Positions 9,653 to 21,769 are shown, counted from the first letter of the stretch. The stretch: 64,000 nt of DNA from Myxococcus dinghuensis (GCF_024198235.1 NZ_JAKCFB010000006.1:248001-312000); one strand, 5' to 3'. Translations and numbers: made by a program. Notes: generated from the sequence alone by a model not told the origin.

Positions 9653-11470
9653 ATGTCCCAGACCTTCCTGAAGCGCCGCATGACCGTGTGGGGAAGTACA
9701 CTCCTGTTCATCGGCTCCGCCTGCACGAGCCAGGCCCCCATGGCGGTCGGCGAGAACCGGACCCGCGCCGCTCCCGTCTCCGTCGCCACCGCCCCTTCTG
9801 GTGCCCAGGGAGAGGCCGCGCTCGATGACGTCGACACCGAGACCCAGCCCGACCCCTCTGTGGAGGAGAAGGCGGCGGCCAAGGCGGAAGGAGAGCGCGC
9901 CGTCGGCCGTGTGGCGCCCCCGGCCTCCCCCGCCCCGATGAAGGCAGCGCCCATGACCCGGGCGGCGGCACCGTCCGCCGCTGGGACTCCCATGATGCAA
10001 CTGCAGCCGATGCAGGAGCTCGCGTCGCCCAAGGACCTGTCGCGGAAGAAGGCGATGGACGGCGCGTTCGCGGACACGTCGGACGTCGGCGGCGCGGAGG
10101 GTGGGGGCAACACGTTCGAGGCCTGGAAGCCGAACACCTTCACCGAGACGGCGAAGGATCCGCTGTCCACCTTCGCCGCGGACGTGGACACCGCGTCGTA
10201 CACGGTGGCCCGGCGCTACCTGGTCCAGGGCAACCTGCCCCCCGGGTCCTCCGTGCGCGTGGAGGAGTTCGTCAACTACTTCAAGTACCGCTACGCCCCG
10301 CCGGAGAAGGGGGCCTTCACCGTGCACCTGGAGGCCGCACCCTCGCCCTTCAACACGAAGCGCCACTTCATGCGGGTGGGTGTGCAGGGCAAGGTCGTCT
10401 CGCGCTCGCAGCGCAAGGTCGCGCACCTGGTGTTCCTCGTGGACACCAGCGGCTCCATGGCCTCCAGCGACAAGCTGCCCCTGGCGAAGGAGGCCATCAA
10501 GATCGCGGTGAAGAACCTGAACGAGAACGACACGGTGGCCATCGTCACCTATGCGGGCTCGACGCGGGACGTGCTGCCGCCCACGCCCGCCACGGACATC
10601 AAGCGCATCCACGCCGCGCTCGACATGCTCGAGGCCGGCGGTGGCACCTCCATGGGCACGGGGATGGAGCTGGCGTACCGCCACGCCGTGAAGAAGGCCG
10701 CGGGCGGCGTGGTGTCCCGCGTGGTGGTGCTCACGGACGGCGACACCAACATCGGCCCCAACCTCTCTCCGCAGTCCATGCTGGAGAGCATCCACAAGTA
10801 CGTGGCGGAGGGCGTCACCCTCACCACGGTGGGCTTCGGCATGGGGAACTACCGCGATGACCTGATGGAGAAGCTCGCCGACAAGGGCAACGGCAACTGC
10901 TTCTACGTCGACAGCTACAAGGAGGCGCGCAAGGTCTTCGAGACGCAACTGACCGGCACGCTGGAGGTCATCGCCAAGGACGTGAAGCTCCAGGTGGAGT
11001 TCAACCCCGTCGCGGTGAAGCGCTACCGCCTGCTGGGCTACGAGAACCGCGACGTGGCGGACCGCGACTTCCGCAACGACAAGGTGGACGCGGGTGAGAT
11101 CGGCGCGGGCCACAACGTGACCGCCCTGTACGAGGTGGAGCTGGAGCGGGAGACGAACGCCCCGCTGGCCACCGTGCGCGTGCGCGCCAAGGCGCCCAAC
11201 GGCACCGAGGCGTCCGAACAGGCCTTCGCCTTCGAGCGCGCGAAGCTGCGCGAGTCGCTGGAGGCCGCGTCGCCCGACTTCCGCTTCGCCGTGGCCGTCG
11301 CGTCCACCGCGGACATCCTCCGCGGCAACCCGGCCACCGAGGGCTGGAGCCTGATGACCGCGCAGAAGCTGGCGGAGGGCGCCGCCGCCGGGGACGCGGA
11401 TCGACTGGAGTTCGTGAAGCTGGTGGCCCAGGCACGTGCGATCTCGGGAGCCTCGGCGCGGGGGCGCTGA
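9653..11470 (+). CDS. VWA-domain lipoprotein, YfbK-like
   Basis: A 605-residue protein. The N-terminus has a positively charged start, a hydrophobic stretch and the lipobox IGSAC with Cys24, so it is probably a lipoprotein. A proline/alanine-rich linker follows, then a conserved segment ([20 protein letters not shown]) typical of the YfbK group, the von Willebrand A domain with the MIDAS motif DTSGS at about residue 263, and a C-terminal domain usual in this group. VWA domains bind a divalent metal and mediate protein-protein contact; the partner here is unknown. GGAG stands 6 bases before the ATG. It is monocistronic and followed by a hairpin shared with the convergent gene. Confidence 0.9.
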
Positions 11471-12284: not shown

Positions 12285-12983
12285 ATGCGCTCATTCCCTC
12301 TTCCGTCCCGCGTCCTGCTGTTCCCCGTCGCCACCGCGCTCCTCGCCTGTGCGGGGTGTAGCGATGACCCCACCGGCGGAGGTGTGCCGTTGGGGGAGGA
12401 GCAGAAGGGCATCGCGACCTATTACGACGCCACGGGCGCCGGCAATTGCAGCTACGACCCCAGCCCGGGCGACCTGATGGTGGCGGCCATGAACACGCCC
12501 CAGTACGCCAACAGCGCGGCCTGCGGCCAGTGCGTGGACATCCAGGGCCCCAGCGGCTCGGTGCGCGTGCGCATCGTCGACCGCTGCCCCGAGTGCGAGG
12601 CGGGCCATCTCGACCTGAGCCGCGAGGCCTTCGCGAAGATCGCCGAGATGCGCCTGGGCCGCGTGGACATCACCTGGAAGGTGGTCTCCTGCGACGTGGC
12701 CGGCGGCCTCGAGTACCACTTCAAGAACGGCAGCAACCCGTGGTGGACGGCCATCCAGGTGCGGAACCACCGGCTGCCCATCTCCAAGCTGGAGTGGCGG
12801 CGCGGGAACGGCGCCTGGCAGAACGTGCCGCGACAGGACTACAACTACTTCGTCAACGAGAGCGGCATGGGGGAAGGCGCCTTCAACGTCCGGGTGACGT
12901 CGTCCACGGGGGAGCAGGTGGAGGACACCCTGCCCGGCGTCCTGGACAACGGCACGTACGAGGGTGACAGCCAGTTCCGCTGA
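12285..12983 (+). CDS. Bacterial expansin-like lipoprotein (DPBB + CBM63 domains)
   Basis: A 232-residue protein. A signal sequence ends in LLACAGC, with Cys22 or Cys25 as the lipid-attached residue. Residues about 40-130 form a double-psi beta-barrel like expansin domain 1 (GIATYYDATGAGNC, AACGQCVDIQGP, VRIVDRCPECEAGHLDLS; the Asp in HLDLS matches the essential acid). Residues about 140-230 match the cellulose-binding expansin domain 2: NPWWTAIQVRNHRLPI carries the aromatic pair, and DYNYF the further aromatic. Expansins loosen plant or fungal wall polymers without hydrolysis. Starts at 12222, 12255 and 12264 are also in frame; 12285 gives the cleanest signal peptide. Confidence 0.85.
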   Translation: MRSFPLPSRVLLFPVATALLACAGCSDDPTGGGVPLGEEQKGIATYYDATGAGNCSYDPSPGDLMVAAMNTPQYANSAACGQCVDIQGPSGSVRVRIVDRCPECEAGHLDLSREAFAKIAEMRLGRVDITWKVVSCDVAGGLEYHFKNGSNPWWTAIQVRNHRLPISKLEWRRGNGAWQNVPRQDYNYFVNESGMGEGAFNVRVTSSTGEQVEDTLPGVLDNGTYEGDSQFR

Positions 12984-13035
12984 AGCCCCCTCCCCGCCCG
13001 CGACACCCGGGGCCATGGCCCCGGGCGCCTCGACG

Positions 13036-16000
13036 TCACCGCCGCAGCATGGAGCGCAGCAGCTCCAGCGCCTCGGTGACGCCCTGCCAGACCTGGAGCG
13101 ACTTGACGCCCTCGCCCTCGCCCTGGATGGCGCGGCGGGAGGCGCGCTCCAGCGGCAGCAGCGCGCCCTCCACCAGCTCGATCTGCCGGCTGAGCTCCGC
13201 GGGGGACGGCCCCACGGCGTTGGCGGTGCGCTGGAGGGCCTCCACCGGCACCTGGGCGGACACGTTCACCGGCCGCTCCGCCAGCGAGGAGAGCGCCCGG
13301 GAGAGCTGCTCCATGTACGGGCCGAAGTCCGTCTGGGGCGCGGCCACCGCCGCCGGCTGCGCCACGGGCGTCGCCACCCGTTCGGTGAGGGCCTTGAGCA
13401 GTTGGGCCAGGTGCTTCAGGTACGGCGTCATGTCCGTGGCGGCGGCGGGCGCGGGAGCCGGCTGCACGTCCTTCACCTCCCGACCCACCCTGGCGACCTC
13501 CAGCACCGCGTCGCGCAGCGCCTCCAGGTACGGCAGCGCCTCCGCCGCGGGGCTCTCGTCCTGGGACGTGCCCTGCTGGACCTGGGTGGCGGCCTGGACC
13601 ACCGCGTCGCGCACCGCGCCCAGTTGCTCCTCGATGCCGCTGAGCTGGCCGGTGACGCGGGCGACGGGGTCGTCCTCCTTGCCCCCCATGCGCTTGACGC
13701 GCGCGAAGCCCTGCTTGATCTCCTCCCACCGCTTCGCCTTCTCCGGCGTCAGGCGGCCCCGCAGCTCCGCCAGCTTGAGGAGGTTCTGCTCGGCCGCCGT
13801 GGTGAGCGTCTGGGATTCGCCCTGGTAGTGGTCGTCGACGAGCCGCTCCAGCTCCGCGTCCGTCATGGCCGCGACGAGCTTCTCCGCCAGCTTGCCCATG
13901 TTGCGGTAGCTGCCCTGGAGCTTGAACGCCGGCTCCGTGCGGAAGCGCTCGTCCTGCGCCGCCGAGGCGATGTACTGCATGTTCACCTTCAGCAGCACCG
14001 ACTGGACGCGGAACATCCGCTGGAAGATGGCGATGATCTCCTGGAGCTCCGCCGCCGCGTAGCCGTGCTTCAGCTCACCCGCGGGCACCTCCTCGCCCTG
14101 CGCCATGCGGATGATGCGGTGCGTGTCCGCCGCGTCGCGCGTCGCCAGCGGCGCCGTCACCACGTTCGACGTCAGCGCGTTCTCCAGGTAGCTGAGCGCG
14201 AACAGGTGCTCCTTCCCGTCGAGGATGTCACCCAGGTTGTAGGTGTCCGCGCGGTTGGCGAGCATGTCCGGGATGCGGAAGCGCTCGCCCGTCTCCGTGT
14301 ACGGGTTGCCCGCCATGACGACGCAGAACTTCTTGCCGCGCAGGTCGTAGGTGCGCGTGCGGCCGTTCCAGACGCCCTCGACGCGGCGCTGGCCGTCGCA
14401 CAGCGAGATGAACTTCTGGAGCAGCTCCGGGTCGGTGTGCTGGATGTCGTCGAGGTAGAGCATCACGTTGTTGCCCATCTCGAAGGACAGGTTGATGCGC
14501 TCCACCTCCTGGCGGGCCGTGGCGTTGGGGGCTTCCGCCGGGTCCAACGACTTCACCGCGTGACCCAGCGCCGGACCGTTCACCTTCACGAAGGCGAGCC
14601 CCAGCCGGCTGGCCACGTACTCCATCAACGTCGTCTTGCCGTAGCCCGGCGGCGACATGAGCAGCAGCATGCCCATGCGGTCGGTGCGCTTGCCCTCGCC
14701 CGCGGCGCCGAGCTGCTTGGCGAAGTTCGCGCCGATGAGCGGCAGGTACACCTCGTCGATGAGCCGGTTGCGCACGAAGGACGACAGCACCTTGGGCGAC
14801 AGCTCGTCCAGGCGCAGCTTGCGGCGCTCGCGCTCCAACAGGTCCCGCAGGAGCGCCCGGTACGCCTGGTACTGGGGCACGCGAAGCTGTCGGAACTCCC
14901 CCAGCCGCGCCAGGAACTCGTCCAGGCGCACCGCCAGCTTGCGGTCCTGGATGCGCGGATGGCTGCCGAGCAGGCCCGTCACCTCCGTCGCCATCAGGGC
15001 GCCCGCGGGCTCGCGATCCAGCTTGCGGTCCGTGAGCAGCAGCACGGCCGCCTCCAGGGCCACGTGGACCGCGTCACCGGGCCCCCCCTCTCTCTGCGAG
15101 AGATAGGCGTCCACCCACGCGCGGGCGACCTCCAGCCGGGAGGCCAGGTCCTTCTCCAGGCCACGCAGGTCCTCCTCGAACGCGGAGCGCGTCCCCTGCC
15201 GGTCGAGCTGCGCCAGCAGCGCGTCCCGCAGCGCCAGCGCCTCGCCGCTCGTGGTGAAGCGGGGGCGCTCCACCGCCAGCTCCTCCACGAGGTACCGGCC
15301 GGCCAGCCGCGCCTCCGCGGGCGAGTGCTTCACGCCATGCTTCTGGAGGAAGGCGGCCACGGCCTCGCCCAGCGCGATGCCCAGCTCCCCCATCCCGCCC
15401 GCGGAGATGAACGTCCTGCGGAGCCGCGCCAGGCTCCGCGCGCGCCGGTGCAGGAGCGTCCGGACCCCCTCGTCCGCGTCGAAGGCCCAGTACAACGCGG
15501 CCCACGCCCGGGGCAGCGGCGCGAAGCGCAACAGCCCCGCGCCCTGGTGCAGGTGGAGCAGCTTCTCCAGCAGCGCCGTCGCGTCGACGTCGTGGACGCC
15601 GCGCTCGTAGCCCTCGTCGAAGCGGTCCGCGGCGACCGCGCGCACGCGCTCCAGCAGGCTGCCGGCCATGAGGGCCTCGTGGAGCACCGTCAGCGTCAGG
15701 CCGCCCCGCCCCTCCTCCGCGTCCGTCAGCACGCAGGAGGCCAGGTACTCGGCGCGGTACACGTCACGCGTCTCGGAGACGAGGTGCTGCTCCCAGAGGT
15801 CCTGGTACTCGAGCAGCTTGGGGTCCTCGAGCTTCTGCGCGTAGTCCGTGCCGGAGAGCTGGAGGAAGAGCGCGCCGTCGCGAGGCACGAGCGTCAGGTC
15901 CAGCGGCTGGGTGTTGACGTTGAAGCGGTACGTCCCCAGCTTGATGAGCGCGTCGCCCTCCGCGAACAGGTCCTGCTTGTCGCGCAGCGCCCGCAGCGCG

Positions 16001-18540
16001 TCCTGCTTCGCGGACTTCAGGCGCGACAGGACCTCGTCGGAGCGGACGCTGTCCTGGAGCGCCAGGAGCTGCTCGGCGAGCTGCCGCAGCTTCAGGATCA
16101 TCGCGTCGGTGGCGAAGTAGCCGTTGAGTTCGTCGTCGGACTTGAAGGACTTCGCGCGGCGCTGCACGCCCTGGAGGATGCGCTCGGCCGCGCCGAACAG
16201 GCTCTGCGCGCGGCGCTGGCGCTCGTCCACGAGCGTCTGCTTGCGCGCGCCGAACGCCTCCAGCAGCTCCTCGCGCTTCTGGGTGATCTGCCCCAGGAAC
16301 TCGTCGAACTCGCCGAAGCGCCCCTCCAGCTCCTCCAACTGGACGGTGAGCCGGGACAGGCCCTCGTCGCACTTCTCCGGCAGGTCCGCCTGGGCCAGGG
16401 CGTTCTCGATGGCCTGCCCGAGCAGCCGGAACTGCGCGCCGAACTCCGCGCGCTTCTCCCGGCCCGACAACTCCTTGCGCTTGGCCGCGAGGCTGGCGCG
16501 CACCCGGTTGAGGCGGCCGAACAGCTCGGAGATGCCCTCCAGGATGCGGGCGCGGGCCAGCGGGTCACCCACCTGGAGCCCGCCGACGACCTCGCCCAGC
16601 ACCGTCAGGCCCTGGGCCGTCTTCTCCACGTCCTCACCCAGCGGCGCCAGCTCCACCGTGGTCTGCACGGGCTCCAGCTTCGCGAGCAGCTCGTCCAGGC
16701 GCGCGGCCAGCGGCTGGAGCGCCTCGCCCTTCTGGAGGAACTCCACGCACCCGGTGCTGGTGCGGTCGGACGCCTCCACCACCGCGGCCTCCAGGGCATC
16801 CACGCGCCCCAGGTCCATGTAGCGGATGTCCTTCAGGGTGATGAGGTGACCGCGCTGCTGGCGCAGCTCCGCCAGCACGAGCATGAATTCCTCGGCCGTG
16901 GTGAGCAGCTCCGGCCGCACGCGCCCGAGCAGCTTCTCCTGCGTCTTCTCCGCCGCGGCCAGGGACTCCGTGGCGCGCTTCTGGAGCGCGAGCACCTTCT
17001 CGAACTCGTCGATGATGAGCTCGGAGGTGCGGCGCAGCGACTCGATGGGCTCCTGGAGCTGCGTCTCCGCGTGCCCCAGCCAGTAGTACGCGTCGAGGGC
17101 GCGCGTCGACGACCCCACCAGGTCCTCGTAGGTGCGCCGGCTGGGCTTCTCCGTCTTCGCGATGCGCTGGAGCGTCAGCGCGTCGGAGATGCCGCGCACC
17201 AGCTCCGCGTTGCCCACCTTGCCCAGGTAGCCGGGCGCGGGCGGCGTGGCCGCGGCGTGCTCGTCCGACACGAACGGCGTCTGCCACACCTGCATGGGGT
17301 GCACGCGCGTGGGCTCCTGCGACGTCTCGCGGAAGACCACCAGCCCGCCGTCCGAGAAGAGGCTGAAGCCGTTGCACACCAGCGGGTTCTGCACCTCCTT
17401 GCGCACCAGGTTGTACGGGAAGAGCAGGTAGCGGCCGTCCTCGCGCTGGTGGAAGACGTAGAGCACGTCCTCCCCGTTGGGCGAGCGGATGACCTGCTTG
17501 AACTCCATGCCCACGCCGGTGGCGTCGCCCTCGAAGACCTTGTAGTCGCCCGTCTGGAGGTAGTACCCGCCGGGGAAGATGACGCCCTGGTCCTCCGGCA
17601 GGCGGATGCAGGCCTGTCCCAGCGCGTCGATGCGCGCCACGTGCTGCGTGCGCGAGTTGAACACGAGGAAGCGCGGCGCCGCCTCGCGGAACGGCTGCAC
17701 GCGCAGGAGGATGAGCGAGCCCACCTGGGCCCAGGCGAACTTCGCGTCGTCCAGCGACTGGTTCGCGTCGTCCACGGGCTCGCTGTAGATGCCCAGCCCG
17801 GTGGACGTGTTGTTCTCCACCTTGACGGTGAGGTCCCCCTTCACCGTCTCCACGAACACCTGGTCCAGCACGTTGACGTGCGGGTGCGCGCCCAGGACGT
17901 AGTTCTCGCGCGTGGCCACCGTCCACTCGAAGTCATGCGACGGCGGGAAGACGTGGTCGCGCTCGCCCTGGTTGTCCACGTACGTCGCGCGGCCGTCCGT
18001 CTCCAGGGTGAAGCGGAAGACCTTGATGTCGCGCGAGGAGCGGCCCGTCTGGAACACCGCCAGCAGCCGCGTGTCCTTGCGCCGCAGTTGCAGGAGCTTG
18101 GCGTCCTTGTAGTAGCGATACAGCTCCCCGAAGTCGCGCACGAAGCGCGGGTCCGCGAGGAAGCCGCCCGCTTCGGTGTGCGGCACGGCGGACAGGTCGA
18201 ACCCCTCCGCCGTCTTCTCGAAGCGATGCAGCGAGAAGACGTCCGCGACGGAGGTCTCCTTCTTCAGGCCGATGAAGACGTTGTACCCGAAGAGCAGGTA
18301 TCGCCCGACGCTGACGATGTCGCGCGCGACGCAGTTGTGCTCGGTGCGCACGCGCTCGTTGCCGGTGATGGAGAGCTCCGTGCCCCCGAAGAACGCCTTG
18401 CGACGCGCGTTGAGGTCGTTCGCCTTCCCGCCCAGCGCGTCCGCCTGCGCGAGCAGGCGCGTCCGGATGACCTCGTAGCTGCCGCCCTCCAGCGCCACCT
18501 CGCCCGCGGGCGCCGCGCCCTTGCCGCCGTCAGTTGCCAT
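13036..18540 (-). CDS. Giant AAA+ ATPase of the DUF3686 type, partner of the flotillin gene
   Basis: An 1834-residue cytosolic protein. Residues 1 to about 520 are a beta-rich region that I assign from memory to the DUF3686 family (often labelled DNA repair ATPase without direct evidence). About 520-1240 is long alpha-helical, coiled-coil-rich. The AAA+ domain follows: Walker A GYGKTT with Lys1302, Walker B MLYLDDIQH with Asp1364-Asp1365, sensor 1 VVMAGN, and a conserved RFRIPDMLANRAD that may hold the arginine finger. The C-terminus (about 1500-1834) is helical and alanine-rich. It lies 164 bp downstream of the flotillin gene in the same direction. It probably acts as a remodelling ATPase at the flotillin-bound membrane; the client is unknown. 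Confidence 0.85.
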   Translation of the reverse strand: MATDGGKGAAPAGEVALEGGSYEVIRTRLLAQADALGGKANDLNARRKAFFGGTELSITGNERVRTEHNCVARDIVSVGRYLLFGYNVFIGLKKETSVADVFSLHRFEKTAEGFDLSAVPHTEAGGFLADPRFVRDFGELYRYYKDAKLLQLRRKDTRLLAVFQTGRSSRDIKVFRFTLETDGRATYVDNQGERDHVFPPSHDFEWTVATRENYVLGAHPHVNVLDQVFVETVKGDLTVKVENNTSTGLGIYSEPVDDANQSLDDAKFAWAQVGSLILLRVQPFREAAPRFLVFNSRTQHVARIDALGQACIRLPEDQGVIFPGGYYLQTGDYKVFEGDATGVGMEFKQVIRSPNGEDVLYVFHQREDGRYLLFPYNLVRKEVQNPLVCNGFSLFSDGGLVVFRETSQEPTRVHPMQVWQTPFVSDEHAAATPPAPGYLGKVGNAELVRGISDALTLQRIAKTEKPSRRTYEDLVGSSTRALDAYYWLGHAETQLQEPIESLRRTSELIIDEFEKVLALQKRATESLAAAEKTQEKLLGRVRPELLTTAEEFMLVLAELRQQRGHLITLKDIRYMDLGRVDALEAAVVEASDRTSTGCVEFLQKGEALQPLAARLDELLAKLEPVQTTVELAPLGEDVEKTAQGLTVLGEVVGGLQVGDPLARARILEGISELFGRLNRVRASLAAKRKELSGREKRAEFGAQFRLLGQAIENALAQADLPEKCDEGLSRLTVQLEELEGRFGEFDEFLGQITQKREELLEAFGARKQTLVDERQRRAQSLFGAAERILQGVQRRAKSFKSDDELNGYFATDAMILKLRQLAEQLLALQDSVRSDEVLSRLKSAKQDALRALRDKQDLFAEGDALIKLGTYRFNVNTQPLDLTLVPRDGALFLQLSGTDYAQKLEDPKLLEYQDLWEQHLVSETRDVYRAEYLASCVLTDAEEGRGGLTLTVLHEALMAGSLLERVRAVAADRFDEGYERGVHDVDATALLEKLLHLHQGAGLLRFAPLPRAWAALYWAFDADEGVRTLLHRRARSLARLRRTFISAGGMGELGIALGEAVAAFLQKHGVKHSPAEARLAGRYLVEELAVERPRFTTSGEALALRDALLAQLDRQGTRSAFEEDLRGLEKDLASRLEVARAWVDAYLSQREGGPGDAVHVALEAAVLLLTDRKLDREPAGALMATEVTGLLGSHPRIQDRKLAVRLDEFLARLGEFRQLRVPQYQAYRALLRDLLERERRKLRLDELSPKVLSSFVRNRLIDEVYLPLIGANFAKQLGAAGEGKRTDRMGMLLLMSPPGYGKTTLMEYVASRLGLAFVKVNGPALGHAVKSLDPAEAPNATARQEVERINLSFEMGNNVMLYLDDIQHTDPELLQKFISLCDGQRRVEGVWNGRTRTYDLRGKKFCVVMAGNPYTETGERFRIPDMLANRADTYNLGDILDGKEHLFALSYLENALTSNVVTAPLATRDAADTHRIIRMAQGEEVPAGELKHGYAAAELQEIIAIFQRMFRVQSVLLKVNMQYIASAAQDERFRTEPAFKLQGSYRNMGKLAEKLVAAMTDAELERLVDDHYQGESQTLTTAAEQNLLKLAELRGRLTPEKAKRWEEIKQGFARVKRMGGKEDDPVARVTGQLSGIEEQLGAVRDAVVQAATQVQQGTSQDESPAAEALPYLEALRDAVLEVARVGREVKDVQPAPAPAAATDMTPYLKHLAQLLKALTERVATPVAQPAAVAAPQTDFGPYMEQLSRALSSLAERPVNVSAQVPVEALQRTANAVGPSPAELSRQIELVEGALLPLERASRRAIQGEGEGVKSLQVWQGVTEALELLRSMLRR

Positions 18541-18704
18541 GCGTGCTCACCGGAAAACCGCGTGGACCCCACCCCCGCTCCCTCACGACGTGGAGGGAGC
18601 GCCAAACCCCAGGCGGTCCCCGGGGCGAGGTCGTCGTTACGTCACGTCTGGACATCCCGGCCGCCACCGCTCCGGGCGATGGCGGCCCCACTCGCTGACC
18701 GGTG

Positions 18705-20867
18705 TCAGCCCTTCTTGTCGGCGGCCGGACGGCCGTCGCTGCCCGCCAGCGCCTTGAGGGCGGAGGCCGCGTCCACCGAGCCCGGCGTCATGCGGTGCAG
18801 GAGCGCCGCCACGGCCAGGTTCTGCGCGTCGTTGCTCAGGCCCGGCTTGGAGAGGATCTCCTTCAGGTCCGCCGGCAGGTCCTTCTCGCCGTTGAGGTAC
18901 CCCCCGAGCGCCTGCTTCAGGGCCTCGCCGTGCTCCAGCGCGCCGTCCACCGCGGTGCCGAAGGACACCGCCTTCACGAAGCGCTCGAAGAACTGGCCGT
19001 CGCCGCCCACGATGTTGAACTTCGCGTTGGCGAAGGCCTTGGCGAGCACCTCGGCCTGCGAGTGGGCGATGTCCTTGCGGACGCGGATGGTCTCCAGCTC
19101 CACGTCGCGCTCCTTGTTCAGGCGCAGGCGGAACTCCTCGTGCTCGCGGCCCACCCCGTCCATCAGCTTCATGGACGCGGCCTTCTCCGCCAGGCCTCGG
19201 GCCTCGGCGAGCAGCTTCTCCTGGATGGCCGCGGCCTCGGCGAGCTGCTTCTCCTTCGTGGCGAACGCCTCCGCCTCGCCGCGCTTCTGGATGGCCACCG
19301 CCTCGGCCTCCTGGACGCGCGCGTGGGCCAGGCCCTTCTCCTGCTCACCCGCGGCCTCCGCCAGCAGCCGCTCGCGGACGACCTGCGCCTGGGCGTGGCC
19401 CTGCTTCTCGATGGCGCCGGCCTCCGCCTCCTTCACGCGAACCTGCGCCATGCCCAGCTTCTCCGTGGCCACGGCGTCCGCCTCCTTCACGCGGATGCCC
19501 GCCAGGCCCTCGGCGGCGGCCTCGGCCTGGACACCCTCGGCCAGGCGCGCCTTTGCCTTGGCCGTCTTGTCCGCGGCCTCCAGGTCCGCCTCGGCGAGGG
19601 TGAGCTTCTCCTTCGCCAGGAACACCGCCATCTCGCTGTTGGCCTTGGCCGCGTTCACGTCCTTGACCGTCTTCTCCTGGGCCTGGGCCTCGGCGGTGAT
19701 GATGAGCGCGTTCTTCTTGCGCAGGGCGTCCGACTCCACGCGCAGGTCCTTGATGCGCTCCTCCTCCTGCGCCACCGTCTTCTCCACGGCGATGCGGGCA
19801 CGCACCACGTCGGCGATGTCCTTCTTCTGCTCCTCGAGCGCGCGCTCCTTGGCGATGCGCTCGAGCTCCGTGTCGCGCTCACGGCCGATGGCCGCCAGCG
19901 AGCGGGCGCGCTCGACGTTCTCCGCCTCGACGCTCACCTCGCGCTCGCGGTGCTTCTGGGCCACCTCGATGTCGCGCGTCTTGTGCTGCTCCTGGACGAG
20001 GATCTCCTGCTCGGCCTTGATGCGGGCCAGCTGGGCGCGCGAGTACTCGCCCTGCTTGACCAGCTCCGCCTCGGCCGTCTCGCGGGCCTGCACGCTCTCG
20101 ATGGCGCGCTTCTGCTTCGCGGAGGCCTCCTCGCGCTGGCGCTCCAGCTCGAAGATGCTCTCGTCCGCCTCGACGTTGCGCTTGGTCACCGCCTGGCGCT
20201 CGCTCTGGCGCAGCTCGTTGGTGACGACGTTGTGCTCGGTGGTGAGCTTGGTGATCTTCCGGATGCCCTCCGCGTCGAGGATGTTGTCCTTGTCGAGCAT
20301 CTCCACCGGGGTCTGCTCCAGGAAGTCGATGGCGCAGTCCTCCAGCATGTACCCGTTGAGGTCCTTGCCGATGACGTCGACGACCTGGTCCTTGATCTTC
20401 GCGCGCTGGGTGTAGAGGTCGACGAAGTCGAAGCTCTTGCCCACCGTCTTGAGCGCCTCGGAGAACTTGGCCTCGAAGAGCTTCTCGAGCGTCTCCTGGT
20501 CGCTGGCGCGCGCGCAGCCGATGGACTGCGCCACCTTCAGCACGTCCTCGCGCGTCTTGTTCACCCGCACGAAGAAGGTGACCTTGATGTCCGCCCGGAT
20601 GTTGTCCTGGCAGATGAGCCCTTCCTTGCCGCGCCGGTCGATCTCCACCGTCTTCAGGGAGATGTCCATGACCTCGGCCCGGTTGATGATGGGAAACACC
20701 ACCGCGCCGGTGAACGTGACGAGCGGCTCGCTCTTCAGCGTGTTGACGATGAGCACCTTGCCCTGGTCCACCTGCCGGTACAGCCGGACGATGGTGAGCA
20801 GGATGCCGCTGAGAAGGATGATGCCGCCGACGCCGGCGGCGATCGCGGTAACTGGATCCATGGCCAT
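18705..20867 (-). CDS. Flotillin family (SPFH/band 7) protein, YqiK-like
   Basis: A 720-residue protein. One membrane helix (about residues 9-30, GVGGIILLSGILLTIVRLY) is followed by an SPFH domain (about 35-200) and a long coiled coil full of AEA/KEAEA repeats (about 215-600), the flotillin hallmark; the last 100 residues are a conserved tail. Flotillins assemble into large rings or microdomains in the membrane. Length and the motif VEIDRRGKEGLICQDNIRAD fit the YqiK branch. The first ATG has AGGA only two bases upstream; the second ATG at 20861 is spaced better and may be the real start. It sits between the YqiJ-like gene (110-bp gap) and the giant ATPase gene. Confidence 0.93.
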   Translation of the reverse strand: MAMDPVTAIAAGVGGIILLSGILLTIVRLYRQVDQGKVLIVNTLKSEPLVTFTGAVVFPIINRAEVMDISLKTVEIDRRGKEGLICQDNIRADIKVTFFVRVNKTREDVLKVAQSIGCARASDQETLEKLFEAKFSEALKTVGKSFDFVDLYTQRAKIKDQVVDVIGKDLNGYMLEDCAIDFLEQTPVEMLDKDNILDAEGIRKITKLTTEHNVVTNELRQSERQAVTKRNVEADESIFELERQREEASAKQKRAIESVQARETAEAELVKQGEYSRAQLARIKAEQEILVQEQHKTRDIEVAQKHREREVSVEAENVERARSLAAIGRERDTELERIAKERALEEQKKDIADVVRARIAVEKTVAQEEERIKDLRVESDALRKKNALIITAEAQAQEKTVKDVNAAKANSEMAVFLAKEKLTLAEADLEAADKTAKAKARLAEGVQAEAAAEGLAGIRVKEADAVATEKLGMAQVRVKEAEAGAIEKQGHAQAQVVRERLLAEAAGEQEKGLAHARVQEAEAVAIQKRGEAEAFATKEKQLAEAAAIQEKLLAEARGLAEKAASMKLMDGVGREHEEFRLRLNKERDVELETIRVRKDIAHSQAEVLAKAFANAKFNIVGGDGQFFERFVKAVSFGTAVDGALEHGEALKQALGGYLNGEKDLPADLKEILSKPGLSNDAQNLAVAALLHRMTPGSVDAASALKALAGSDGRPAADKKG

Positions 20868-20977
20868 TTCCTGACGTGTGATGACAGCGGGCCTTGTATC
20901 AGGCGCTGGAGATCCCCCGCATAAGCCCTCCAGCGTCGAACGGGTCGGTCGCTCCCCCTGAGCGGACCCTGGTGTCT

Positions 20978-21769
20978 TCAGCCGTGTGATTTGACCCGGG
21001 CGAGCGCCGCGGCCCGTGCGGGGTCACGCAGCTGCTCGAGTTCCTCCGGAACGAGCCAGTCGACTGGCTCCACTTCATAAGCGTCGCGCGCGGCGTCGTA
21101 AGCGAGAATGAGCGCCGGGTCTCCACGCTTGAGCTCGTTCGCCTTCGCGCAGACGACGTGGAGGAGCATCCCCGCGCCGCCGTCCTCGAGCGAGGCGTGG
21201 CCGCTGGTGCCCGTCACGCCGCCGCTGGCGATGGTGCACACACGGCCCATCAGCGAGTCACGGCCCGGTGCCTTCTTCGCGACGAAGACCGGGCGCAGCG
21301 GCCGGACGGCGAGCCCCGAGGCGACCGTGGCCACCATGAAGCACACCAGGCCCAGCACGGTGCTGATGAGCCACGAAGGCAGGAAGGGTCCCAGGGCCGC
21401 GTGCGCGGGCTGCGCGCTGGAGACGGACAGGAACCAGGAGATGAAGGACACGAGGCTCACGGAGACCGTGAGCGGGATGCCGGCGAAGCCCAGCGCGGAG
21501 AGGATGCCCCCGTCGACGTGCGCGTCGTGGTCGTGGGCGCCCAGCGCCTTGCCACCCGCCTCCACCGCCCCGCCCAGCGCCTTGCCACCCGCCTCCACCG
21601 CCCCGCCCAGCGCCTTGCCGCCGGCCTCCAGGTGCAGGTCGCCGCCGTCCAGGATGTCGATGCCCACCGCGCCAATGATGACGAACAGCCAGTAGGTCAT
21701 CACCACGCCCAGGACGATGGTGAAGATGGCCGTGGGAAACGCGAGGATGGCGTCGAGAAAAGGCGTCAT
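20978..21769 (-). CDS. YqiJ/DUF1449-like membrane protein with OB-fold tail
   Basis: A 263-residue protein with an N-terminal membrane helix (about 10-38), a glycine/alanine linker made of three copies of an 11-residue unit (KALGGAVEAGG), a histidine/aspartate cluster (AHDHDAHVDGG), two further membrane segments (about 95-120 and 130-155) and a C-terminal beta domain of OB type (about 170-235). This matches the YqiJ/DUF1449 family, related to NfeD proteins that pair with flotillins. It lies just upstream of the YqiK-like flotillin gene, the same order as yqiJ-yqiK in Escherichia coli. Probable role: membrane partner of the flotillin scaffold. Confidence 0.8.
   Translation of the reverse strand: MTPFLDAILAFPTAIFTIVLGVVMTYWLFVIIGAVGIDILDGGDLHLEAGGKALGGAVEAGGKALGGAVEAGGKALGAHDHDAHVDGGILSALGFAGIPLTVSVSLVSFISWFLSVSSAQPAHAALGPFLPSWLISTVLGLVCFMVATVASGLAVRPLRPVFVAKKAPGRDSLMGRVCTIASGGVTGTSGHASLEDGGAGMLLHVVCAKANELKRGDPALILAYDAARDAYEVEPVDWLVPEELEQLRDPARAAALARVKSHG
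21540..21638. repeat. Three 33-bp tandem repeats inside the YqiJ-like gene
   Basis: Units begin at 21540, 21573 and 21606. The first two are identical and the third diverges in its second half. Each adds 11 codons, so copy-number change would keep the frame and only alter the length of the linker between the first membrane helix and the rest. Confidence 0.85.

What the first reader, a model, noticed from the sequence alone, without database searches (positions are those of the whole stretch)
13036..21769. Flotillin + YqiJ/DUF1449 + giant DUF3686 AAA+ ATPase module
Three consecutive - strand genes encode a YqiJ-like OB-fold membrane protein, a YqiK-like flotillin and an 1834-residue AAA+ ATPase with intact Walker A (Lys1302) and Walker B (Asp1364/Asp1365). 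Flotillins usually lack an obvious energy-using partner; here a huge coiled-coil ATPase sits directly behind. The ATPase family is generally labelled DNA repair without evidence. Inference: a membrane-microdomain machine in which the ATPase remodels flotillin rings or proteins gathered by them, possibly a stress or conflict system.
Basis: partly seen in the sequence, partly recalled or inferred. Interest (0 to 1): 0.75.

Follow-up and report, generated by a model that had tools for sequence, protein, structure and literature searches.

The report
Flotillin operon with a giant ATPase
Three neighbouring genes encode a membrane-raft scaffold protein, its membrane partner and a very large ATP-burning motor; the same trio recurs together in distant bacteria, was already described from genome comparisons in 2024, and probably maintains the cell membrane under stress, although nobody has tested what the motor does.

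Summary
In detail: YqiJ-like protein (20978-21769), flotillin (18705-20867) and 1834-aa DUF3686 AAA+ ATPase (13036-18540) lie consecutively on the - strand. ATPase and this flotillin subfamily co-occur almost all-or-none: 91 of 95 Myxococcota genomes with either, 22 of 22 in the Pseudomonas family. The kind is not new: Ravi et al. 2024 (PMC11237479) described this operon, often with PspA and a CesT/Tir chaperone. By gene order the ATPase corresponds to BacF of the P. aeruginosa bac operon. New here: near-obligate pairing; an AAA fold nearest to MoxR-type NorQ/CbbQ; and Asp instead of the Walker B catalytic Glu in 105 of 105 sequences, so 'intact Walker B' is overstated. Best reading: a membrane-maintenance machine in which a MoxR-like ATPase remodels clients at a flotillin/YqiJ scaffold. 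DNA repair has little support; a conflict role has none beyond plasmid carriage and patchiness.

The parts
20978..21769 (-). YqiJ/DUF1449-like (NfeD2-type) membrane protein, 263 aa; about 3 TM stretches and a C-terminal soluble part
   Evidence: family alignment; profile matches E. coli YqiJ, E 4e-13; hydropathy. OB fold itself not tested here
18705..20867 (-). Flotillin (YqiK-like, giant SPFH2-type), 720 aa; N-terminal TM about residues 4-31, then SPFH domain, long charged helix-rich region, C-terminal part
   Evidence: Band_7 E 8e-11; family alignment; 29% identity to E. coli YqiK over 425 aa
20340..20774 (-). SPFH/Band_7 domain of the flotillin (residues 32-176)
13036..18540 (-). DUF3686 AAA+ ATPase, 1834 aa
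17275..18378 (-). Beta-rich propeller-like domain of the ATPase (residues about 55-422, within DUF3686)
   Evidence: AlphaFold2, mean pLDDT 87; WD40 propellers, Z up to 10.6, 214 aligned, rmsd 6.2
15967..17265 (-). Long helical/coiled-coil segment of the ATPase (residues about 426-858, includes DUF7902)
13753..14793 (-). AAA+ module (residues about 1250-1596): Walker A SPPGYGKTT, Walker B hhhhDD, sensor-1 N1412, candidate Arg finger R1430, candidate sensor-2 R1546
   Evidence: closest folds CbbQ/NorQ, Z 17.1 and 16.6; these motif residues invariant or nearly so in 105 sequences
13036..13590 (-). Poorly conserved C-terminal tail of the ATPase (residues 1651-1834)
   Evidence: conservation 0.09-0.16 against 0.77-0.81 in the AAA core

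Best explanation
A membrane-maintenance (envelope-stress) machine. SHOWN: the flotillin, the YqiJ/NfeD2-type protein and the DUF3686 ATPase form a conserved gene unit; this flotillin subfamily and the ATPase are nearly always present or absent together; the ATPase combines a propeller-like N-terminal domain, a long helical arm and an AAA+ module whose predicted fold is nearest to MoxR-type remodelling ATPases (NorQ, CbbQ). INFERRED: the flotillin, anchored with YqiJ, builds a ring or cage at the cytoplasmic face of the inner membrane. The ATPase assembles as a hexamer and docks on that scaffold through its propeller and helical arm, which take the adaptor role that a separate VWA protein plays for NorQ/CbbQ. 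ATP-driven movement then remodels a client held at the scaffold: the flotillin cage itself, a PspA polymer (encoded in the same operon in many Gammaproteobacteria and elsewhere in this genome), or a membrane protein.
For: Gene linkage 69 of 71 assessable loci (raw map). Co-occurrence on the same genome samples: Myxococcota, 93 with DUF3686 and 93 with the flotillin subfamily, 91 shared; Pseudomonas family, the same 22 genomes of 119. Where the ATPase is unlinked (5 genomes) the flotillin gene is still in the genome with YqiJ beside it. PspA plus YjfI-type CesT/Tir gene upstream in 24 of 71 loci; a Hymenobacter plasmid has Tir-PspA-DUF1449-flotillin-ATPase. MoxR-like fold: 6l1q CbbQ Z 17.1 over 252 residues, NorQ Z 16.6, with a strongly conserved sensor-1 / Arg-finger region around GNPYTE...FxIPDMLANRAD. 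Propeller. Literature: Ravi et al. 2024 describe the operon and propose chaperone-like membrane assembly; P. aeruginosa bacABCDEF is one transcript and BacB-BacF rise 6 to 13-fold together in a bacA mutant, PA3731/BacB accumulates on osmotic shock; HflKC cages enclose the AAA+ protease FtsH.
Against: No direct evidence that ATPase and flotillin touch. Deleting P. aeruginosa SPFH genes gave little phenotype. Walker B lacks the canonical catalytic Glu in all 105 sequences, so strong ATP turnover is not assured. In this genome the single clear PspA gene is on another contig with no CesT/Tir gene found beside it. No stress-type promoter stood out upstream of yqiJ. The identification of BacF with DUF3686 is by gene order, not by sequence in hand.
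Confidence: 0.55

Rival explanations
1. DNA-repair or DNA-remodelling ATPase, as Pfam ('ATPase involved in DNA repair') and plasmid annotations ('DNA repair ATPase') name it, that merely shares an operon with membrane genes.
For: Family name; weak matches of the Walker A region to RuvB profiles and RuvB among structural matches; knock-out of the flotillin relative SO1377 in Shewanella raised mutation rate, which its authors attribute to iron and oxidative stress.
Against: RuvB sequence similarity covers only about 45 residues around Walker A and is far below the curated cut-off (22 against 282 bits); best folds are NorQ/CbbQ; partners are membrane proteins in 69 of 71 loci; no paper found for DUF3686 in the open-access library.
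Confidence: 0.06
2. Conflict or anti-phage system: the ATPase and flotillin guard the membrane and act against phage or plasmids.
For: Patchy in the Pseudomonas family (22 of 119); carried by some plasmids (12 records), including pQBR103; PSP homologues are classically phage-shock induced.
Against: No PADLOC model beyond weak P-loop similarity of the ATPase to IetA, E 0.0009; none in 50,697 phage records; in the window's own taxonomic family it is one locus per genome, in 47 of 59 genomes, with flanking genes shared among nearest relatives, as a housekeeping gene would be.
Confidence: 0.08
3. The ATPase is mainly a scaffold or slow switch: with Asp in place of the Walker B Glu it binds ATP but hydrolyses it little, and works as a nucleotide-gated clamp on the flotillin/PspA assembly rather than as a motor.
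For: Asp1365 invariant in 105 of 105 sequences; some MoxR relatives have low basal ATPase activity; the long helical arm and propeller would suit a scaffold.
Against: Walker A Lys/Thr, sensor-1 Asn and the candidate Arg finger and sensor-2 Arg are all invariant, which speaks for conserved nucleotide cycling; Asp can in principle serve as general base.
Confidence: 0.2
4. Metal-cofactor or complex-assembly chaperone, as for NorQ and CbbQ: the ATPase matures a specific membrane enzyme gathered by flotillin.
For: Fold nearest to NorQ/CbbQ; SO1377 knock-out alters iron metabolism.
Against: No dedicated enzyme gene recurs among the gene families mapped beside the trio; no VWA partner was identified in the trio.
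Confidence: 0.11

Closest known systems
CesT/Tir-PspA + band-7/flotillin + YqiJ/YuaF + novel propeller AAA+ ATPase operon of Ravi et al. 2024 (PMC11237479)
   Same: Same trio and domain architecture; the authors also list the abbreviated operon without PspA, which is what the window has
   Different: They say the ATPase is present 'in some cases' and, in the main text, do not assign its AAA class; here the pairing is near-obligate for this flotillin subfamily and the fold is MoxR-like
P. aeruginosa bacABCDEF operon (PMC2587700, PMC10948618; BacD = PaFlo3, PMC13086221)
   Same: Same gene order in Pseudomonas relatives held here (YjfI-PspA-NfeD-SPFH-small ORF-ATPase, P. composti L093)
   Different: Has YjfI/PspA and a small extra gene; the window operon has neither. 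Identity of BacF as DUF3686 inferred from order only
E. coli yqiJ-yqiK and B. subtilis yuaF-yuaG (SPFH2 with NfeD2; PMC2636767)
   Same: Flotillin with its NfeD2-type membrane partner
   Different: E. coli yqiJK has no ATPase gene beside it and YqiK scores 162 bits against about 480-530 for most ATPase-linked flotillins
HflKC-FtsH
   Same: SPFH cage working with an AAA+ machine
   Different: FtsH is a membrane AAA+ protease; the DUF3686 protein has no TM stretch by hydropathy and no protease match in Pfam
MoxR AAA+ ATPases NorQ and CbbQ
   Same: Nearest predicted AAA fold (Z about 15-17); similar sensor-1 / Arg-finger region
   Different: Those are small with separate VWA partners, and NorQ has the Walker B catalytic Glu; this one is 1834 aa with propeller and helical arm in cis and Asp-Asp
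Vps4/ESCRT-III-type membrane remodelling
   Same: Conceptually an AAA+ ATPase tied to PspA-family polymers in part of the loci
   Different: AAA fold nearest to MoxR/dynein among the matches listed

Membership tests
Flotillin / SPFH2 (YqiK-like) | SPFH/Band_7 domain after an N-terminal membrane segment | tested here: met
   Band_7 E 8e-11 at residues 32-176; hydrophobic stretch 4-31
Flotillin / SPFH2 (YqiK-like) | Homology to a named flotillin-family protein | tested here: met
   29% identity over 425 aa to E. coli YqiK, E 7e-29
Flotillin / SPFH2 (YqiK-like) | Oligomeric ring or cage at membranes | not testable with these tools
   needs biochemistry or cryo-EM
YqiJ / NfeD2 | Homology to YqiJ and gene beside the flotillin | tested here: met
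   E. coli YqiJ matched by family profiles, E 1e-11 to 4e-13; adjacent gene
YqiJ / NfeD2 | C-terminal OB fold | not tested
   no structure predicted for this protein; profile search of the PDB gave nothing significant
DUF3686 family | PF12458 above gathering score | tested here: met
   674 bits against 25
AAA+ ATPase | Walker A, Walker B Asp, sensor 1, Arg finger | tested here: met
   PF00004 34.5 bits (cut-off 21.2) and PF07728 AAA_5 24 bits (cut-off 22); K1302, D1364, N1412, R1430 invariant. Arg-finger and sensor-2 assignments are by analogy
AAA+ ATPase | Canonical catalytic Glu of Walker B (DE) | tested here: not met
   Asp1365 in 105 of 105 sequences
MoxR class (AAA+ clade 7) | Overall AAA fold nearest to MoxR proteins | tested here: met
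   top ten VIA-align rows are CbbQ/NorQ, Z 15.2-17.1; dynein and midasin follow
MoxR class (AAA+ clade 7) | Beta-hairpin helix-2 insert | tested here: inconclusive
   the model has an about 14-residue loop at that place without assigned strands
MoxR class (AAA+ clade 7) | VWA-domain partner protein in the same operon (typical, not universal) | tested here: not met
   the recurrent unit is YqiJ-flotillin-ATPase with no VWA protein identified in it. The VWA protein at 9653-11470 is on the other strand, with two other genes between
PSP system (PspA-based) | PspA-family gene in the operon | tested here: not met
   none beside the trio in the window; one clear PspA elsewhere in the genome, C50. Met in 24 of 71 relatives
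Known anti-phage defence systems | Match to a PADLOC model | tested here: not met
   only weak P-loop matches to IetA for the ATPase; none for flotillin or YqiJ

The most novel reading that the evidence does not exclude
A second kind of SPFH-AAA+ partnership, independent of HflKC-FtsH: a dedicated flotillin subfamily that exists only together with a giant MoxR-like ATPase carrying its adaptor domains (propeller and helical arm) in cis, forming an ATP-powered remodeller of flotillin and PspA membrane assemblies across several bacterial phyla.
Probability: 0.4. Interest if true: 0.65.

Novelty: new member of a known kind. Interest (0 to 1): 0.42.

Why it matters
Bacterial flotillins are widespread but their function is poorly defined. 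A flotillin subfamily that is almost never found without one particular ATPase gives a concrete partner to test, and may help explain why single flotillin deletions are hard to read. It also corrects a misleading database name ('DNA repair ATPase') and places the motor with MoxR-type remodellers rather than with ESCRT's Vps4.

Tried and rejected
(1) A sigma-54 promoter like that proposed for the bac operon: the best site upstream of yqiJ is no better than shuffled sequence (p 0.20), and there is no consistent site in relatives. (2) Defence system: PADLOC and phages gave nothing of weight. (3) PspA beside the trio in this genome: absent. (4) Known structure of the flotillin N-terminal half or of YqiJ by sequence profile: none significant in the PDB copy. 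(5) Literature on DUF3686 by name: no paper in the open-access library. (6) Whether neighbours (DPBB protein, O-methyltransferase, 2OG-like protein) belong to the module: they are conserved only in the nearest relatives, so left out. (7) Vps4-type ATPase: no Vps4 row appeared among the listed structural matches, which is not proof of absence. (9) E. coli genomes hold no close DNA match of the ATPase gene (near mode only, a weak test).

Full report
WHAT IS THERE. The window lies in contig 81 of a 10.4-Mb genome; its nearest named relatives among the loci are myxobacteria (Myxococcus sp. RHSTA-1-4, ATPase 85% identical). Three - strand genes follow each other: yqiJ-like (20978-21769, 263 aa), flotillin (18705-20867, 720 aa) and ATPase (13036-18540, 1834 aa), with gaps of 110 and 164 bp. 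A 2483-aa ORF on the opposite strand (12964-20415) is most likely a by-product of high GC. The ATPase carries DUF3686 (37-486), DUF7902 (606-690) and an AAA domain. The flotillin has an SPFH domain and matches E. coli YqiK; the small protein's family matches E. coli YqiJ.

A profile scan of 84,980 species genomes gave at least 534 stretches encoding relatives; the best 80 were kept, so the sample leans towards closer relatives. Of the 71 with at least 3 kb upstream, 70 have the flotillin and 69 have both flotillin and YqiJ on the same strand upstream; 24 also have PspA plus a YjfI-type CesT/Tir gene. The kept loci include Myxococcota, Actinomycetota, Gamma- and Betaproteobacteria and a planctomycete; plasmid copies add Bacteroidota and Deinococcota. 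The median distance from flotillin stop to ATPase open frame is 73.5 bp.

CO-OCCURRENCE TEST. On one Myxococcota sample of 193 genomes, DUF3686 is in 93 and the flotillin subfamily (profile A2, E <= 1e-60) in 93, 91 shared. In all four discordant genomes (G005, G193, G082, G088) the gene that was found lies on a short contig or runs into a contig end, so assembly gaps can explain them. On 119 genomes of the Pseudomonas family, the same 22 genomes have both. Fisher p values are 3e-50 and 2e-24, but genomes are related, so these overstate independence. In five Myxococcota genomes the ATPase is not next to the flotillin, yet the flotillin with its YqiJ lies elsewhere in the genome. Pairwise distances of ATPase and flotillin correlate at r = 0.91 over 89 loci, as expected of genes inherited together. 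E. coli YqiK, which has no ATPase gene beside it, falls well outside the subfamily (162 bits, against about 480-530 for most linked flotillins).

ATPase ANATOMY. AlphaFold2 of residues 1-900 (66 sequences, mean pLDDT 87) gives a beta-rich domain at 55-422 and long helices to 858. WD40 propellers are the best matches (DCAF1, Z 10.6, 214 aligned, rmsd 6.2), agreeing with the published beta-propeller call. Residues 860-1660 (67 sequences, mean pLDDT 90.9) contain an AAA+ module nearest to CbbQ (Z 17.1, 252 aligned, rmsd 3.8) and NorQ (Z 16.6); dynein and midasin follow at Z 14-15. These belong to the MoxR/clade-7 group. The defining helix-2 beta-hairpin is not visible in the model and there is no VWA partner, so 'works like a MoxR remodeller' is better supported than 'is a MoxR protein'. 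Among 105 aligned sequences Walker A Lys1302, sensor-1 Asn1412, Arg1430 and Arg1546 are invariant, and Walker B is always Asp-Asp.

WHAT IS ALREADY KNOWN. Ravi et al. 2024 describe this operon and its short form without PspA, and propose a chaperone-like role in assembling membrane complexes. The P. aeruginosa bac operon (bacA YjfI-type/DUF2170, bacB PspA, bacC NfeD, bacD SPFH, bacE, bacF) is one transcript, and BacB-BacF proteins rise together in a bacA mutant; a pA3731 (bacB) mutant is defective in biofilm, swarming and rhamnolipids. In P. composti, named as carrying paFlo3, the held locus L093 has YjfI-PspA-YqiJ-flotillin-91-aa ORF-ATPase, so BacF is very probably the DUF3686 ATPase (inference; its sequence was not in hand). 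Deleting P. aeruginosa SPFH genes gave little phenotype. A Shewanella knock-out of a COG2268 flotillin next to a DUF1449 gene was peroxide-sensitive and mutated more.

JUDGEMENT. The module is real, widespread and published as a genomic association; the window holds a new member. Added here: near-obligate pairing, MoxR-like fold, and family-wide absence of the canonical Walker B Glu. Function is inferred: membrane maintenance under stress through ATP-driven remodelling at a flotillin scaffold (confidence 0.55 for the general reading; the exact client is open). DNA repair and conflict readings have little support.

Noticed in passing
L153 (own genome, C94:12000-23383): A bpMoxR AAA gene (PF20030, E 3e-21), then one gene, then a protein with a weak PspA_IM30 match (E 0.0024): a possible second MoxR plus PspA-like unit.
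   Followed up: partly
L089:9007-9267, L093:9473-9763, L112:9638-9862: Pseudomonas loci carry a 75-91-aa ORF between flotillin and ATPase (the bacE position), with sub-threshold TerB / EF-hand similarity.
   Followed up: partly
L125:8400-8999, L127:9302-9904: Betaproteobacterial loci have a 181-aa ORF between flotillin and ATPase; the L125 protein matches a Zn-ribbon family.
   Followed up: no
window 21530-21630 (-): The YqiJ-like protein has an in-frame repeat (EAGGKALGGAV..., about three copies) followed by a His/Asp-rich stretch, in the loop between TM stretches.
   Followed up: no
L146 (plasmid pQBR103, 6986-20190): On this Pseudomonas plasmid the module is merged with a YjfI-PspA-rhomboid-DUF2491-DUF350-DUF1190-glutathionylspermidine synthase operon, joining two PSP operon types that Ravi et al. 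list separately.
   Followed up: no
L148 (Streptomyces plasmid): The module lies among ion-transport genes, with a TerD family gene about 4 kb downstream.
   Followed up: no
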